From Candidatus Obscuribacter phosphatis (GTDB lineage: Bacteria; Cyanobacteriota; Vampirovibrionia; Obscuribacterales; Obscuribacteraceae), in contig MOYA01000001.1 of assembly GCA_001899315.1 (NCBI GenBank), forward strand, positions 1,960,599-2,024,598: DNA of 64,000 nucleotides. Reading direction: 5' to 3'. Position 1 is the first letter of the stretch, and the number at the start of each line of letters is the position of its first letter. The notes beneath the pieces were generated by a model. That model worked only from the letters and a program-made list of their open reading frames with translations, did not search any database and was not told where the DNA came from. Of the stretch, positions 14,414-20,024 are shown piece by piece. The position numbers and the translations under genes are program-made.

Positions 14414-14581
14414 TCAATTACCAGGTTGATTTCCTACACCTACGCGCTTTGCCTTACATTTCTTGGAGCAATACTTGACCTCACTCCATACTTTCTCCCA
14501 TTTCTTACGCCATGTGAAAGGTCTGCCACAGCTCAGACAGACTTTGCTTGGCAGGTCGGACTTATTGACTCCTCTAGGCAT
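14414..14581 (-). CDS. DUF2256 zinc-finger-like small protein
   Basis: From the ATG at 14581 the product has 55 residues. Four cysteines (CLSCGRPF and, further on, YCSKKCK) flank the invariant [16 protein letters not shown] core of DUF2256, implying a small metal-binding protein. DUF2256 genes are often found beside cryptochrome/photolyase genes, as here. It overlaps the upstream photolyase N-domain gene by 8 bp, so the two are translated together. Its function is not established; help with photolyase assembly or DNA binding is a guess from context. Confidence 0.88.
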
Positions 14582-15002
14582 CTTCAGAGCCATCCAGCAA
14601 AAAAGCAGTCTTCTCTGCCTTGTTCCAATACTGAAAGAAACGTCTAAACTCAGTCTTTCTTTGCAACGTAACAAACGGCTCATCCTCAACAATCTTTGCT
14701 GGGACTTCTTTCTTGATGGAATCGATCAAGCTGATAAGCAGCGGATTGTTCGCTGCAGGAATGTAAAGCAAAGAAGGTGCAAGTTGGAGAACAGTTTCCA
14801 GAGTGCCACCGCGAATGATGTCGACGGGTAGTTCGCATAAAGTCTCATAGACAAAAACAAGCCGCTTAAGACTGTAGTTTGCGTCCTTAAAGAACGCATC
14901 ATCCCAAACATAAATAGCTTTAGTTTCAGCCGGGGCCGCATCAAAGACTGGATGGGTTCGGCGTAAGGCTTCTTGATGCAACAATATCAATGGTTTACTC
15001 AT
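14574..15002 (-). CDS. Stand-alone N-terminal (antenna-type) photolyase domain
   Basis: A 142-residue alpha/beta protein resembling the N-terminal domain of cryptochrome/photolyase proteins, which normally holds the light-harvesting cofactor. It starts with a [17 protein letters not shown] strand-helix and alternates strands and helices to a C-terminal [16 protein letters not shown] helix. It overlaps the upstream FAD-binding-domain gene by 4 bp (ATGA) and the DUF2256 gene by 8 bp. Assignment rests on fold resemblance plus context, so it is less sure than the FAD half. The two products probably form one split photolyase. Confidence 0.75.
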
Positions 15003-15793
15003 AATGTCATGCCCAGATTAGGGAAGAGTCCTAGTTGAAGCGTTTCATAAGTTGCGTGGAGCGGTTGATTGAGAGCCGGCGATGTATCAACGAGCTTGCC
15101 GAAATAGCGCTCCACGTTTTCTAGATTGAAAATATAGGGTTTGTTGCTGAAAGTGCTTGCCACCCATTGCCAGGAGAGATTGTTACTAGCAATGTCACCA
15201 TCAAGCAGATGCTGCAAAAACCAACGCGCACCAGCCTGCCATTTGACACGTCGATAGTGCACCACATAACTAGCCAGATACATGCGCGCGTGGTTATGGA
15301 TGTAACCGGTTTCTATTAGCTCGTTTATGAATGCATCAAGGCAAGCAACGCCGGTTTTTCCTTCTGCAATGTCAGCAGGCAAAGCATCGGCATAGTCTTG
15401 CGCACTGAACCCAGTTTTATACGGCTCAACATCTGCCCAAGCCCAGTGTGGATGTGCTCTCAGAACTAGCTGCCAGAAGTCTCGCCAGGCAAGCTCTTGA
15501 ATAAACTTGGTAATCTGCACCGGCTGGCTGCATTGACTGAGTGCATGGTTGCGCACCTCATTCAAGCTCAAGACTCCATGGTGGATATAAGGAGAAAGCC
15601 TTGTGACATGTCCATCGCCAAAGTTGCGACTGCCGCCGTACTTAATGGGATTGATAGCAGCCAAGCGCATCTCAGCTTTTAGTCTACCGCCCTGAATCTG
15701 GCTCGCCGCACCATCTGCCCACGGTGCAAGTTTCTTGACGTATGCAATGAGACTGTCCCTGTCATCAAAGCAAGTCTGTAATGTACTCGTCAT
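14999..15793 (-). CDS. FAD-binding domain of a split DNA photolyase/cryptochrome
   Basis: This is the catalytic half of a photolyase: the helical domain that binds FAD and repairs or senses via light-driven electron transfer. Motifs are RLSPYIHHGVLSL, IQELAWRDFWQ, TGYIHNHARMYLASYVVH and the signature DGDIASNNLSWQWVASTFS followed by KPYIFNLENVERYF. At about 264 residues it lacks the usual N-terminal alpha/beta domain, which is encoded by the next gene. The ATG at 15793 has AGGA 7 nt upstream and is preferred over 15814. Order on the transcript is FAD domain, antenna domain, DUF2256, the reverse of the domain order in ordinary photolyases. Confidence 0.9.
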   Translation of the reverse strand: MTSTLQTCFDDRDSLIAYVKKLAPWADGAASQIQGGRLKAEMRLAAINPIKYGGSRNFGDGHVTRLSPYIHHGVLSLNEVRNHALSQCSQPVQITKFIQELAWRDFWQLVLRAHPHWAWADVEPYKTGFSAQDYADALPADIAEGKTGVACLDAFINELIETGYIHNHARMYLASYVVHYRRVKWQAGARWFLQHLLDGDIASNNLSWQWVASTFSNKPYIFNLENVERYFGKLVDTSPALNQPLHATYETLQLGLFPNLGMTL

Positions 15794-15814
15794 ATGCGAT
15801 TCCTGTCTTGCCAT

Positions 15815-16126: not shown

Positions 16127-17752
16127 ATGTCAAAACTAAATCTCCACTTCTTCAAGCGTAAGCCAAAGAGCCAACCTCAAGGCGTTCCGTCTAGTAGCAT
16201 ACCGCTATCGGGCATGGTGCCGAACAACGCCTTTGGCTACAGCTATGAAATTGATGACTGGGCAAAACTCCGTCGTTTCCTCATTCTTGGCAGTGAGGGC
16301 GGCACCTATTATGTGGGTGAAGCCAAACTGACTATAGACAACGCCAAGGCTGTCGAACGCTTGTTGCAGATAGAGCCGCTAAAAGTGATTAGCGAAATTG
16401 TTGAAATATCAAAAAGCGGAAGGTCTGCAAAGAATGACGCCTGCCTTTTTGCTTTAGCTATGGGAGCAGGACTGGCTAGCCCAGAAGGCAAGGCGGCTGC
16501 GCTGGCAGCCTTACCTGAAGTGGCTCGTACCGGTACGCACTTGTTTACCTTTGTAGAGTTTGTGCAATCCTTTCGTGGTTGGGGCAGAGGGCTGAGAAGG
16601 GCAATTGCCCGCTGGTACGAACTCATGCCGCCGGAAAAACTGGCGGTGCAGTTAACCAAATATCAACAGCGCAATGGCTGGAGCCATCGCGATCTGCTTA
16701 GACTATCCCACCCTAAAGCTGCTGACGCTCTGCGCAACAGCCTCTATCAATTTGCTGTCAAAGGAACCACTGACGGAATAGAGGATGCCACCATAATTGG
16801 TTTTCAGAAACTGCGCCAAGGCGTAGGCGAAGAAAAGCTTGATGGACCAAGCGTTGCCCAGATTGTGGAAAGCGCAAAACTATCAATTGAAATGGTCCCG
16901 GCAGAGTTGCGCTTTTCCGAGGTCTATCATGTACTGGCTAAGCAAGCCGGTCTAGAGTGGCTGATTAGAAATCTGGGAAATCTGTCTAGGGTTGAATTGC
17001 TCTCTGCCAAAGACAGCGAATTGGTTAATATAGTTTGCCAGAGAATAAATAATCAGACAGCGCTGGAAAAGGCACGACTGCACCCGCTGAAAATCTTGGC
17101 GGCCCTAGCGGTATACCGCTCTGGCTTTGCAGTGCGCGGTGGCGGAATGTGGACGCCTCAAGCAGCAGTTGTTGATGCATTAGACGAGGCCTTCTATAAA
17201 GCCTTCAAGTGCATCACGCCGACAGGCAAGCGGCTCTGCCTTGGACTGGATGTGTCTGGTTCTATGGTTGGTACTAGAGTTAATGGCATTGTCGGTCTCA
17301 CTGCCCGTGAGGCTTGCGGCGCCATGGCTCTGGCGACAGCCAAGAGCGAGCCCCCTGCCAATATCTCATTCGTGGCATACGATACAAAAGCCTATCCTCT
17401 GGCTATAAGCGCTAAGCAAAGGCTGGATGATGTGGTTGGTCTATTGAGCCGCACCGGCGGTGGAGGCACTGACTGTGCAATTCCGATGCACTGGGCGAGA
17501 GAGAACAAAATTCCTGTCGATGTTTTCGTCATTTACACCGACTCAGAAACATGGGCAGGAGAAGATCATCCGCTGGAAGCATTGAATGCCTATCGTGACA
17601 CCATGGGTATCGATGCCAAACTAGTTACGGTGGCAATGGCAGCTAACCGTATCTCGCTTGCTGATTGCACCGACAAGAGAATGCTTAATGTTGTCGGCTT
17701 CGATACAGTCACCCCAGAACTAATTTCACAATTTGCCTTGGGGGACCTATAA
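16127..17752 (+). CDS. rsr: TROVE-domain RNA-binding protein (Ro60/Rsr orthologue)
   Basis: Ro60-type ring protein that binds Y RNAs and the 3' ends of misfolded or degraded RNAs; in Deinococcus and Salmonella, Rsr works with polynucleotide phosphorylase. The 541-residue length is typical. The N-terminal two-thirds is the helical-repeat TROVE ring (NNAFGYSYEIDDW, GRGLRRAIARWYE, RNGWSHRDLLRLSHPK). The C-terminal von Willebrand A domain has an intact metal site (DVSGSM, GGGGTDCAIP, YTDSETW). Five bp after its stop begins a Y-RNA-like ncRNA, the arrangement expected of a genuine Rsr locus. Confidence 0.96.
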   Translation: MSKLNLHFFKRKPKSQPQGVPSSSIPLSGMVPNNAFGYSYEIDDWAKLRRFLILGSEGGTYYVGEAKLTIDNAKAVERLLQIEPLKVISEIVEISKSGRSAKNDACLFALAMGAGLASPEGKAAALAALPEVARTGTHLFTFVEFVQSFRGWGRGLRRAIARWYELMPPEKLAVQLTKYQQRNGWSHRDLLRLSHPKAADALRNSLYQFAVKGTTDGIEDATIIGFQKLRQGVGEEKLDGPSVAQIVESAKLSIEMVPAELRFSEVYHVLAKQAGLEWLIRNLGNLSRVELLSAKDSELVNIVCQRINNQTALEKARLHPLKILAALAVYRSGFAVRGGGMWTPQAAVVDALDEAFYKAFKCITPTGKRLCLGLDVSGSMVGTRVNGIVGLTAREACGAMALATAKSEPPANISFVAYDTKAYPLAISAKQRLDDVVGLLSRTGGGGTDCAIPMHWARENKIPVDVFVIYTDSETWAGEDHPLEALNAYRDTMGIDAKLVTVAMAANRISLADCTDKRMLNVVGFDTVTPELISQFALGDL

Positions 17753-17753
17753 T
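17725..17753 (+). promoter_or_regulatory. Promoter of the Y-RNA-like gene, inside the end of the TROVE gene
   Basis: The -35 TTCACA (17725-17730, five of six consensus bases), a 17-bp spacer and a perfect -10 TATAAT (17748-17753). The -10 overlaps the TROVE stop codon TAA. The predicted start is about 17758-17761, exactly where the RNA's closing stem begins. Confidence 0.7.
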
Positions 17754-17757
17754 AGAA

Positions 17758-17895
17758 GATGTCGGGTCGAAGGCCCAGGTTATCGACTTCCAATCGACAG
17801 GTCGCGGGTTCGAATCCCGCCGCAGGTTTTGGAAACAAGACAGGCGTAGCTCAGCGGTAGAGCGGTTTTATCTGGTCCAATCCTTATCCGACATC
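17758..17895 (+). ncRNA. Y-RNA-like (YrlA-type) ncRNA with a circularly permuted tRNA-like module
   Basis: Closing stem GATGTCGG (17758-17765) pairs with CCGACATC (17888-17895). A purine-rich internal loop (GTCGAA) follows, then a second helix GGcCCAG/CTGGtCC (17772-17778 with 17872-17878); together they resemble the Ro-binding end of Y RNAs. Inside is a tRNA cloverleaf in permuted order. Anticodon-type arm: stem TCGA/TCGA, 7-nt loop CTTCCAA. Variable loop: AGGTC. T-arm: GCGGG-TTCGAAT-CCCGC, 17804-17820. Acceptor-like stem: CGC/GCG plus GTTTTG/CAAGAC, closed by GAAA. Then TA and the D-arm GCTC-AGCGGTA-GAGC, 17849-17863. Its position right after the TROVE gene, a consensus promoter and a TTTT run after the closing stem all support a real gene. 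Known Salmonella YrlA also has a tRNA-like module. Confidence 0.88.
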
Positions 17896-17903
17896 TTTTA
17901 ATT

Positions 17904-17963
17904 GACCGGGACGATTTCTGAGGGTTATTGCCAAACACTCCCTCAGTTGATTTTTGACCGGTC
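17904..17963. other. Nested hairpin downstream of the Y-RNA-like gene
   Basis: Outer stem GACCGG (17904-17909) with CCGGTC (17958-17963) encloses CTGAGGG (17918-17924) with CCCTCAG (17940-17946). It could be a bidirectional terminator between the ncRNA and the convergent protease gene, or another small RNA. There is no clear U-run on either strand. Confidence 0.4.
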
Positions 17964-18164: not shown

Positions 18165-19880
18165 CTACTTTCTGTCGGTGCTAATCGCCATACCATCAAA
18201 TCGGGCGTTGACCTCAGGCAGAGGCAACTTAAAGAGACCATCATCGACTCCGTCACTGTATTTCTCTGCAGTCGGTTCTCCGTCGCCCCAAGGGTTGTAC
18301 AAAGTCACCTCGCCAGTCTGCTTGTCATAATCTACGACGCCATAAACATGATTGGTGGCAAGACCCAATTGTTTAACCGAATAGGGGCTCGGCACCTTTT
18401 GCCCATTGACGGTAGCGTTCTCATAAGAACTAACCGCCACAAAATCACCTTGAGCCAAGGCTTGCTCGATTGTAGCGGCAAGTTCGCCGCCTGAATATGT
18501 TCTAGGATTAGAAACAAGAGGATCACTGGGTGAAAGAACAGCACCAACATCTTCCAAAGTAGCGCCAAAAGGTACAGCAAGATGAGGTAAACCTTGATGC
18601 TGCTCTGTCTTTCTCGCCATATATGCTCCAAATGCCTTTTCTAACAGAGGCGCCCAATAGCCATGTTCAGTACCGCCGCCGAATCTTGCCAATTCTGTCG
18701 CTGTAGGGGCTTCTACAGTTACAGGATTTTCTGGATCAGCAGGAAAAGTAATTGTGTAAGTCGTCCGCCCGGATGAGTCAGCCTCATTGACTGTAATCAT
18801 ATCTAGAATTTTCTTCTTACCGGCCTCGGTAGCAGCTAGAGAAGCCAGCGGTCCAAGAAAATAGCAGTCACCAAGCCCCTCTTGATTAACGCCTTGCGGC
18901 ACTATGCTCTCAATAGGTGACTCGTCTGCAAAAAGCACATCGCTTGCTTCGCTCAAGCGGTCCGCGTGCTCTAGCAGCGAAGCGTTGATGTCATGCAACT
19001 TTCGAGGCAATAAGCCATCTATATGCTCAAAGGATTTCTCTAGGTCAGCTCTGGTAATTCCATTATTCTCAATGAACCACTCGTCATTACTGGCAGAAAT
19101 AATGGTATCCCAGTTTTCTTGTAACTGACTCTTTAGCATAGAAGGCTGCACCTTCTCATACACACCTTTGACGCCTTGGAACTGCCCTACCTCATCCCAA
19201 GAGATAGAGCCATCAGTATTTTGATCAAGCTGATCAAAAATAGCAACTGCTGCAGGTTTAAGGTAGCTAGTTCCCGAAAGAAAGTCTTTGGATGACGGCG
19301 ACAATATATCATAGATCCTAGAATCAACTATCTTAGTACGGTAGTCCGGCACCTCAAGTTCGAACTGTAACAAGCCTTTCGCATAAGCCTCTGGATCTAC
19401 TACATACTGACCAGCAAGGCTAAGCGCGTCGCCAGCCATTTCGATATCGGCAGCTGTAACAAGCCCGGCACCCTCGCTGAGTCCTTGTATAGAAAAGAGA
19501 GTCAAATCAGAAAAATGTTTATTGATTGTCGCCAATACAATCGCATCACGACCAGTTATATCGGTTGAAGCAAAAGCACTCTCAATTTCGCCTTTACTCA
19601 TTGCACCATCATAATCTGTATCTACCTTAGGCAAGAGAGCCTTAGCCACCTCGCCGAAATCGGACGGATAAATATTAGAGAACTCCAGCACTGGCTCGCT
19701 TTCGCTTGACGAAGCCAGGGATTTGTTTCCCCCACCAGCTACATTTTGTTCAAGAGATGGGGCTGACACTCGGCTAGGCGCATAGACTTCATCAAAGAGT
19801 CTGCTCGCATTGTCCACAGAACTATCGCTTAACCTGCCAGGTTCCGACATATGGTCATGAGAAGCAATGATATCCGACAT
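18165..19880 (-). CDS. Calpain-family cysteine protease with EF-hand-like calcium sites
   Basis: A 571-residue protein from the ATG at 19880. Calpain (C2) catalytic triad: Cys in EGLGDCYFLGPLASLA (about 340), His in LATNHVYGVVDYD (about 522) and Asn in VTLYNPWGDGEP (about 541). The N-terminal half carries two calcium-loop sequences (DTDYDGAMSKGEIE near 82-95 and DQNTDGSISWDEVG near 234-247), so calcium control of proteolysis is plausible. I see no signal peptide; the first 60 residues look disordered, so it could be cytoplasmic or exported by a non-Sec route. Bacterial calpains are uncommon and their targets mostly unknown. The gene upstream may be its partner. Confidence 0.92.
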   Translation of the reverse strand: MSDIIASHDHMSEPGRLSDSSVDNASRLFDEVYAPSRVSAPSLEQNVAGGGNKSLASSSESEPVLEFSNIYPSDFGEVAKALLPKVDTDYDGAMSKGEIESAFASTDITGRDAIVLATINKHFSDLTLFSIQGLSEGAGLVTAADIEMAGDALSLAGQYVVDPEAYAKGLLQFELEVPDYRTKIVDSRIYDILSPSSKDFLSGTSYLKPAAVAIFDQLDQNTDGSISWDEVGQFQGVKGVYEKVQPSMLKSQLQENWDTIISASNDEWFIENNGITRADLEKSFEHIDGLLPRKLHDINASLLEHADRLSEASDVLFADESPIESIVPQGVNQEGLGDCYFLGPLASLAATEAGKKKILDMITVNEADSSGRTTYTITFPADPENPVTVEAPTATELARFGGGTEHGYWAPLLEKAFGAYMARKTEQHQGLPHLAVPFGATLEDVGAVLSPSDPLVSNPRTYSGGELAATIEQALAQGDFVAVSSYENATVNGQKVPSPYSVKQLGLATNHVYGVVDYDKQTGEVTLYNPWGDGEPTAEKYSDGVDDGLFKLPLPEVNARFDGMAISTDRK

Positions 19881-20024
19881 AGTAAAACCGCCCACTTAAG
19901 AAAACAGATAAATTACTCTGTAAATAAGTAGGATAGCGAGTCGATGAAACCAGACAGTGACCTTTTCGTGACCGAGTTGTGACTACAACTCTAACTTCAA
20001 AACAATTACTGAAAGAGCCCTGCC

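What the first reader, a model, noticed from the sequence alone, without database searches (positions are those of the whole stretch)
17758..17895. Unannotated Y-RNA-like gene right after the TROVE/Ro60 gene
A closing helix of eight perfect pairs, a purine-rich internal loop and a second helix enclose a tRNA-like domain. It starts 5 nt after the TROVE stop, has its own promoter and is followed by TTTT. Y RNAs beside Rsr are known in a few bacteria (Deinococcus, Salmonella, Mycobacterium-type YrlA). An instance in this kind of organism would widen their range.
Basis: partly seen in the sequence, partly recalled or inferred. Interest (0 to 1): 0.85.

Follow-up and report, generated by a model that had tools for sequence, protein, structure and literature searches.

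The report
Twin Y RNAs beside bacterial Ro60
Right after the gene for a bacterial relative of the human Ro60 autoantigen, this non-photosynthetic cousin of cyanobacteria carries two small RNA genes of the Y RNA kind, one of them built around a complete but rearranged tRNA shape; it is a good new example of a known kind of RNA, with features (an anticodon arm, motifs shared with animal Y RNAs) that deserve a closer look.

Summary
Window 17758-17895 folds as described. The closing helix extends to about 12 pairs, a near-consensus promoter (TTCACA-17-TATAAT) overlaps the TROVE stop, and TTTT follows. Rfam YrlA aligns end to end (36.3 bits, E 1.5e-6) but below Rfam's cut-off of 69. Ten such RNAs from nine TROVE loci of the same family covary strongly: 23 of 34 RNAalifold pairs change on both sides.

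The TROVE protein is a Rsr/Ro60 orthologue; the host is a Ca. Obscuribacterales (Melainabacteria) bacterium. The RNA is a bacterial Y RNA of the tRNA-like (YrlA) type.

(2) The tRNA-like part is a complete circularly permuted tRNA with an anticodon arm, which the Rfam YrlA model lacks; in 47 YrlA-type RNAs next to TROVE this arm and a UUA(U/C)C motif recur far above shuffles. (3) UUA(U/C)C and the helix with a bulged C match published features of animal Y and nematode sbRNAs.

The likely role is a tether or gate between Rsr and PNPase, inferred from Deinococcus. Y RNAs were already known in many bacteria and phages, so this is a new member of a known kind.

The parts
16127..17752 (+). TROVE/Ro60 (Rsr) gene, 541 aa
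   Evidence: Pfam TROVE 1.6e-33 and vWA_Ro60 5e-55; PDB 2nvo Rsr 1.9e-114 and 1yvp Ro60 3.3e-108; NCBIfam RNA-bind_Rsr 519.9 bits, below its equivalog cut-off of 900
17725..17753 (+). sigma-70-type promoter of the tRNA-like Y RNA: TTCACA, 17 nt, TATAAT (overlaps the TROVE stop codon)
   Evidence: 11 of 12 matches; spacing and -10 conserved in four relatives
17754..17899 (+). tRNA-like (YrlA-type) Y RNA with extended closing helix and 3' TTTT; core 17758-17895
17758..17765 (+). closing helix, 5' strand (pairs with 17888-17895), followed by GU, bulged C 17768 and GAAGG: Rsr-binding-site-like
17775..17780 (+). upper helix 5' strand CCAGGU (pairs with 17870-17875)
17778..17784 (+). GGUUAUC motif, invariant in the 10 tRNA-like Y RNAs of the family
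17783..17797 (+). anticodon-like arm UCGA-CUUCCAA-UCGA (loop with U33, UCC at anticodon positions, A37 A38)
   Evidence: insertion relative to Rfam YrlA; 1.8 kcal/mol above the MFE alternative
17799..17803 (+). AGGUC, five-base tRNA variable region
   Evidence: sequence; GGUC conserved in the column table
17804..17820 (+). T arm GCGGG-UUCGAAU-CCCGC
17821..17846 (+). acceptor-stem equivalent, closed by a GAAA tetraloop (17832-17835); no CCA end
17849..17863 (+). D arm GCUC-AGCGGUA-GAGC
17870..17875 (+). upper helix 3' strand AUCUGG
17888..17895 (+). closing helix, 3' strand, followed by TTTT 17896-17899
17904..17963 (+). second, simple (non-tRNA-like) Y RNA candidate: closing helix GACCGG/CCGGUC, upper stem CUGAGGG/CCCUCAG, loop starting UUAUU
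   Evidence: MFE -21.9, z -3.3; RNAalifold with 13 relatives: 5 of 10 pairs change on both sides; model R1 hit 45.2 bits, though the sequence is part of the model; R1 finds hits only at TROVE loci in 60 genomes

Best explanation
17754-17899 is a gene for a bacterial Y RNA of the tRNA-like (YrlA) type, and 17904-17963 is most likely a second, simple Y RNA; both partner the Rsr/Ro60 protein encoded just upstream. The paired 5' and 3' ends (long helix, bulged C, GAA/UU region) would be the Rsr-binding stem. The inner part is a complete circularly permuted tRNA shape: anticodon arm, variable region and T arm come first, then an acceptor stem closed by a GNRA loop, then the D arm. It cannot be aminoacylated because it has no free acceptor end. 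By analogy with Deinococcus it would act as the effector module that attaches Rsr to PNPase and gates access of structured or damaged RNA. Shown here: structure, conservation, synteny, promoter sequence, Rsr orthology, presence of a PNPase gene. Inferred: transcription, Rsr binding, PNPase tethering.
For: Full-length Rfam YrlA match, E 1.5e-6. TROVE protein closest to Rsr and Ro60 structures. TROVE is rare in relatives (10 of 146 genomes), yet all 9 with an intact locus have a tRNA-like Y RNA on its 3' side within 1.3 kb. Covariation in every variable helix. Promoter conserved. Second Y RNA: covariation and model hits confined to TROVE loci. PNPase gene present, 975 bits. Same layout at TROVE loci of cyanobacteria, Nonomuraea and Gordonia and Mycobacterium phages and in viral contigs. 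Function of YrlA, Rsr and PNPase in Deinococcus: PMC8394870, PMC4726728.
Against: No transcript data. The Rfam score is below the family cut-off (36.3 against 69), though the YrlA hits I found beside TROVE in an actinobacterium and actinophages score only about 37-52. The RF02553 model also matches tandem tRNAs by chance arrangement (controls). The anticodon arm is not the MFE fold of the isolated RNA, and two relatives (G030, G042) have degenerate arms. No canonical terminator was found.
Confidence: 0.88

Rival explanations
1. Remnant of a tandem tRNA pair: the 3' part of a tRNA-Gly(UCC)-like gene followed by the 5' part of another tRNA, without function of its own.
For: T arm, then spacer, then D arm is what two neighbouring tRNA genes give, and RF02553 rings on such pairs in control genomes. 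Real tRNA genes stand in the Y RNA clusters of G028 and G041.
Against: The linker folds into a covarying closed acceptor stem with a GNRA loop; two outer helices covary; ARAGORN finds no tRNA here; the unpermuted sequence matches host tRNAs over most of its length only up to 76% (a tRNA-Met); the arrangement is conserved in nine loci down to about 42% TROVE identity.
Confidence: 0.02
2. It is the 3' untranslated region and terminator of the TROVE mRNA (a cis element), not an independent RNA.
For: It starts 5 nt after the stop and ends in a long helix plus TTTT; co-transcription is possible.
Against: Own promoter conserved in five genomes; in G028, G029, G041 and G015 the RNAs lie 0.1-1.2 kb from TROVE and often in several copies, and in cyanobacteria upstream of it; the tRNA-like interior has no obvious use in a terminator.
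Confidence: 0.06
3. A permuted tRNA gene, as in some algae and archaea, that is processed into a working tRNA-Gly(UCC).
For: All tRNA parts are present in permuted order, with a plausible anticodon loop CUUCCAA.
Against: The break lies between the D and anticodon arms rather than in the anticodon loop; the acceptor ends are joined by a GNRA loop with A/G mismatches and no CCA; the anticodon differs among relatives (UCC, UGU, CAU, ACG, UUC) and is lost in G030 and G042; outer helices are conserved instead.
Confidence: 0.02
4. It is a Y RNA, but its tRNA-like part acts as a decoy for tRNA-cutting or tRNA-modifying enzymes (for instance an anticodon nuclease), with no PNPase tether in this lineage.
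For: The anticodon arm with U33, A37 and A38 is kept well above shuffles. A competitive-inhibitor role has been suggested for Salmonella YrlA (PMC7790460).
Against: Anticodon identity is not conserved; PNPase is present; the only tested function in bacteria is the PNPase tether.
Confidence: 0.2

Closest known systems
YrlA (Rfam RF02553; Salmonella, Mycobacterium and other bacterial tRNA-like Y RNAs)
   Same: Next to a Rsr gene; paired ends; tRNA-like T arm, closed acceptor stem and D arm in the same permuted order; full-length model alignment
   Different: Carries an additional anticodon arm of 15 nt where the Rfam model has only a short join; score below the Rfam cut-off; not in an rtcBA operon (RtcB gene about 250 kb away)
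Simple bacterial Y RNAs without a tRNA-like part (Salmonella YrlB is implied by the yrlBA operon name in PMC7790460; its structure was not compared here)
   Same: The second RNA at 17904-17963 has a closing helix, an internal loop and an upper stem-loop, next to YrlA and Rsr
   Different: No Rfam family matches it; its relatives form tandem sets, with five model hits at the G028 locus
Vertebrate Y RNAs and nematode stem-bulge RNAs
   Same: Helix of about 7 bp, bulged C and 3-nt bulge opposite at the Ro60 site (PMC4726728); UUA(U/C)C at the start of the loop (PMC4450293); a related Gordonia phage Y RNA scores 31.8 bits with the nematode model RF01656
   Different: The tRNA-like domain has no counterpart there; sequence otherwise unrelated; common descent not demonstrated
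Permuted tRNA genes of algae and archaea (from general knowledge)
   Same: 3' half precedes the 5' half
   Different: Break point, closed acceptor, no CCA, conserved outer helices: not a tRNA precursor

Membership tests
Bacterial Y RNA, tRNA-like (YrlA) type | Encoded beside a Ro60/Rsr (TROVE) gene | tested here: met
   conserved in 9 of 9 intact loci
Bacterial Y RNA, tRNA-like (YrlA) type | 5' and 3' ends pair into a stem that carries the Rsr-binding site | tested here: met
   Structure and covariation of the stem; binding itself not testable here
Bacterial Y RNA, tRNA-like (YrlA) type | Domain resembling the D, T and acceptor arms of tRNA (PMC8394870) | tested here: met
Rfam RF02553 as curated | Score at or above the gathering cut-off of 69 bits | tested here: not met
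   36.3 bits; YrlA hits beside TROVE in Nonomuraea and actinophages also score only about 37-52, so the model looks narrow. I therefore file the RNA as a YrlA-type Y RNA, not as a member of RF02553 as delimited
Rfam RF02553 as curated | No arm between the upper helix and the T arm | tested here: not met
   15-nt anticodon-like arm inserted
Bacterial Y RNA, tRNA-like (YrlA) type | Expressed as a small RNA bound by Rsr and PNPase | not testable with these tools
   No transcript or binding data; PNPase gene present
Bacterial Y RNA, tRNA-like (YrlA) type | Modified by tRNA enzymes (DusA, TruB) | not testable with these tools
   T-loop UUCGAAU and D-loop AGCGGUA are present (sequence); modification unknown
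Animal Y RNA / nematode sbRNA (for the second RNA and the shared motifs) | About 7-bp helix with bulged C at the Ro60 site, and UUA(U/C)C loop motif | tested here: inconclusive
   RNAalifold gives 7 bp, bulge, 3 bp; the window's second RNA has UUAUU, G001 has UUAUC; no Rfam match to vertebrate Y RNA
tRNA | Standard order and free acceptor end, found by ARAGORN | tested here: not met

The most novel reading that the evidence does not exclude
Bacterial and animal Y RNAs descend from one ancestor that moved with Ro60. The bulged-C Rsr site and the UUA(U/C)C motif are ancient, and in the tRNA-like bacterial forms UUA(U/C)C merges into the anticodon arm of a complete permuted tRNA, whose anticodon loop has a function (a decoy or sensor for tRNA-acting enzymes). 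Published reviews call bacterial Y RNAs not homologous with vertebrate ones (PMC4726728) and list only D, T and acceptor arms (PMC8394870).
Probability: 0.25. Interest if true: 0.8.

Novelty: new member of a known kind. Interest (0 to 1): 0.48.

Why it matters
It extends the Ro60-Y RNA system to Ca. Obscuribacterales, a non-photosynthetic sister lineage of cyanobacteria, and gives a compact two-RNA locus for study. The comparison shows two features that the Rfam model does not capture, a conserved anticodon arm and UUA(U/C)C. They would improve detection of Y RNAs and raise two testable questions: why an RNA that cannot be charged keeps an anticodon loop, and whether bacterial and animal Y RNAs share ancestry.

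Tried and rejected
Rfam at the gathering threshold found nothing in the window; ARAGORN found no tRNA. RF02553 hits in relatives without TROVE were set aside: the same model rings in 10 of 14 control genomes, and in G005 the hit is two ordinary tRNA genes in a row. A regular-expression search for further Y RNAs gave many chance hits and was replaced by closing-helix and model searches. The second RNA matches no Rfam family. The idea that the anticodon arm is special to this lineage was dropped when cyanobacterial and actinobacterial loci showed it too. The primary papers on YrlA (Chen 2014, Wang 2018, Sim and Wolin 2018) are not held, so I could not check whether the anticodon arm or UUA(U/C)C has already been described. 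Searches for Obscuribacter with TROVE gave one paper that looks unrelated from its title, and for Obscuribacterales with small RNA none.

Full report
1. What is there. The TROVE ORF (16127-17752, +) ends in TAA, and 5 nt later GATGTCGG begins; its perfect complement CCGACATC ends at 17895 and is followed by TTTT. The helix extends outwards (AGAA with TTTT) to about 12 pairs. MFE -52.2 kcal/mol, z -3.4; -56.7, z -4.05 with the extended helix. A promoter TTCACA-17-TATAAT (11 of 12) lies at 17725-17753, overlapping the stop codon. In four relatives the -10 TATAAT and 17-nt spacing are kept, with TTCACA, TTCTCA or TTCGCA as -35. No canonical intrinsic terminator was found by the scan.

2. Identity. 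Rfam YrlA (RF02553) aligns over all 114 positions at 36.3 bits, E 1.5e-6 in a 351-base search, but below its gathering score of 69 (nothing at the gathering threshold). That model also rings on tandem tRNA genes (control genomes; G005), so the score alone is weak. Synteny and covariation carry the case. The neighbour protein is a Ro60/Rsr orthologue: PDB 2nvo (Rsr, E 1.9e-114) and 1yvp (Ro60, E 3.3e-108), Pfam TROVE and vWA_Ro60, NCBIfam Rsr at 519.9 bits, below the equivalog cut-off of 900.

3. Relatives. The two named relatives are a Ca. Obscuribacterales MAG (93% TROVE identity) and a Ca. Melainabacteria MAG (79%). Of 146 related genomes 10 have TROVE. In one of these (G005) the TROVE match is a fragment at a contig end. 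In all nine others a tRNA-like Y RNA stands on the 3' side of TROVE within 1.3 kb, at TROVE identities down to about 42%. RNAalifold on a structure-blind MAFFT alignment of ten such RNAs gives 34 pairs, 23 with changes on both sides and pairing kept. A hand-made structural alignment (biased towards the structure by construction) gives closing helix 92%, upper helix 92%, anticodon stem 88%, T stem 100% and acceptor 94% of cells paired; 0 of 2000 shuffles reach any of these.

4. Anatomy of the tRNA-like part. Read in order: UUA, anticodon arm UCGA-CUUCCAA-UCGA, AGGUC (variable region), T arm, acceptor stem (3 bp, AG/AG mismatch, 6 bp, GAAA loop), UA, D arm. This is a complete tRNA cut between the D and anticodon arms and joined at the acceptor end. 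Close relatives keep a GNRA loop on an 11-position acceptor; others have 6-7 bp and short loops. The Rfam YrlA model has no anticodon arm, and a review lists only D, T and acceptor arms (PMC8394870). The arm is 1.8 kcal/mol less stable than an alternative pairing in the isolated RNA, so its support is comparative. In the ten family members 8 loops have U33, and the two of one genus (G030, G042) are degenerate.

5. The arm and UUA(U/C)C are general. From 130 loci around TROVE (Cyanobacteriota genomes, plasmids, phages, viral contigs) a T-arm/D-arm scan that leaves out ARAGORN tRNAs gave 48 distinct RNAs, 47 after removing one false hit. UUA(U/C)C lies 5' of the T arm in 40 of 47 (3.3 expected from shuffles). 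29 of 47 form a stem of at least 3 bp on a 7-nt loop placed by tRNA numbering (shuffles 9.2, maximum 18), and 25 of those 29 have U33 (shuffle fraction 0.25). So the window RNA is a typical member, not a curiosity. Whether the primary YrlA papers already report this I could not check.

6. A second Y RNA. 17904-17963 folds as GACCGG/CCGGUC, internal loop, CUGAGGG/CCCUCAG, loop starting UUAUU (MFE -21.9, z -3.3). It is conserved in G002 and G001 (G001 has UUAUC). With 13 relatives RNAalifold finds 7 bp, one bulged base, 3 bp, with 5 of 10 pairs changed on both sides. The model built from these 14 (R1) hits only TROVE loci in 60 genomes: 12 hits in 5 genomes, all next to TROVE, five of them in G028. 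Members of the training set hit by construction; the absence of hits in genomes without TROVE is the informative part.

7. Animal resemblance. The Ro60 site of vertebrate Y RNAs is described as a 7-bp helix, a single bulged C and a 3-nt bulge opposite (PMC4726728); the MFE of the window RNA has the helix, a bulged C (17768) and a 3-nt bulge opposite. [quoted passage not shown] A Gordonia phage Y RNA scores 31.8 bits, E 0.011, with the nematode sbRNA model RF01656, below its cut-off of 38. These are short motifs: common ancestry is possible, convergence on Ro60 binding is not excluded.

8. How it most likely works (inferred). Rsr binds the closing stem; the tRNA-like module faces PNPase, which the genome encodes (975 bits), and the RNA tethers and gates the two rings, as shown for Deinococcus (PMC4726728, PMC8394870). 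RtcB exists in the genome but about 250 kb away, so this is not an rtcBA operon. A decoy role for the tRNA-like part, suggested for Salmonella (PMC7790460), is the main functional rival.

9. Verdict. That Y RNAs sit near Ro60 in hundreds of bacteria and phages is my recollection of Chen et al. 2014; the papers I could read say they are found in diverse bacteria and mycobacteriophages, possibly many more (PMC4726728, PMC12282133).

Noticed in passing
   Followed up: yes
L040 (G028), L041 (G041), L042 (G029): Tandem clusters of several simple and tRNA-like Y RNAs follow TROVE; in G028 and G041 ordinary tRNA-Glu(UUC) and tRNA-Arg(ACG) genes stand inside the cluster.
   Followed up: partly
L062, L065, L066, L072, L075, L078, L079, L083: Cyanobacteria carry arrays of tRNA-like Y RNAs upstream of TROVE, repeating GGCCGA...GGGUUAUCG with long closed-acceptor loops; the unit boundaries were not worked out.
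   Followed up: partly
L104 1274-1401 (Gordonia phage Cashline): A phage Y RNA matches the nematode stem-bulge RNA model RF01656 (31.8 bits, E 0.011), a hint at shared motifs between bacterial and animal Y RNAs.
   Followed up: no
14574-15814 (-): Photolyase-like gene in two overlapping ORFs: the first holds part of the FAD-binding domain (Pfam FAD_binding_7), the second has no Pfam match but looks like an N-terminal photolyase domain by eye; order reversed relative to a normal photolyase, or a rearrangement.
   Followed up: no
17590-17838 (-): An 82-aa ORF antisense to the RNA contains AAGFEPATCRLE, which is antisense T-arm sequence; it is a spurious ORF that annotation pipelines might call.
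   Followed up: no
18165-19895 (-): Calpain-family cysteine protease with EF-hand-like motifs, on the opposite strand and converging on the Y RNA genes.
   Followed up: no
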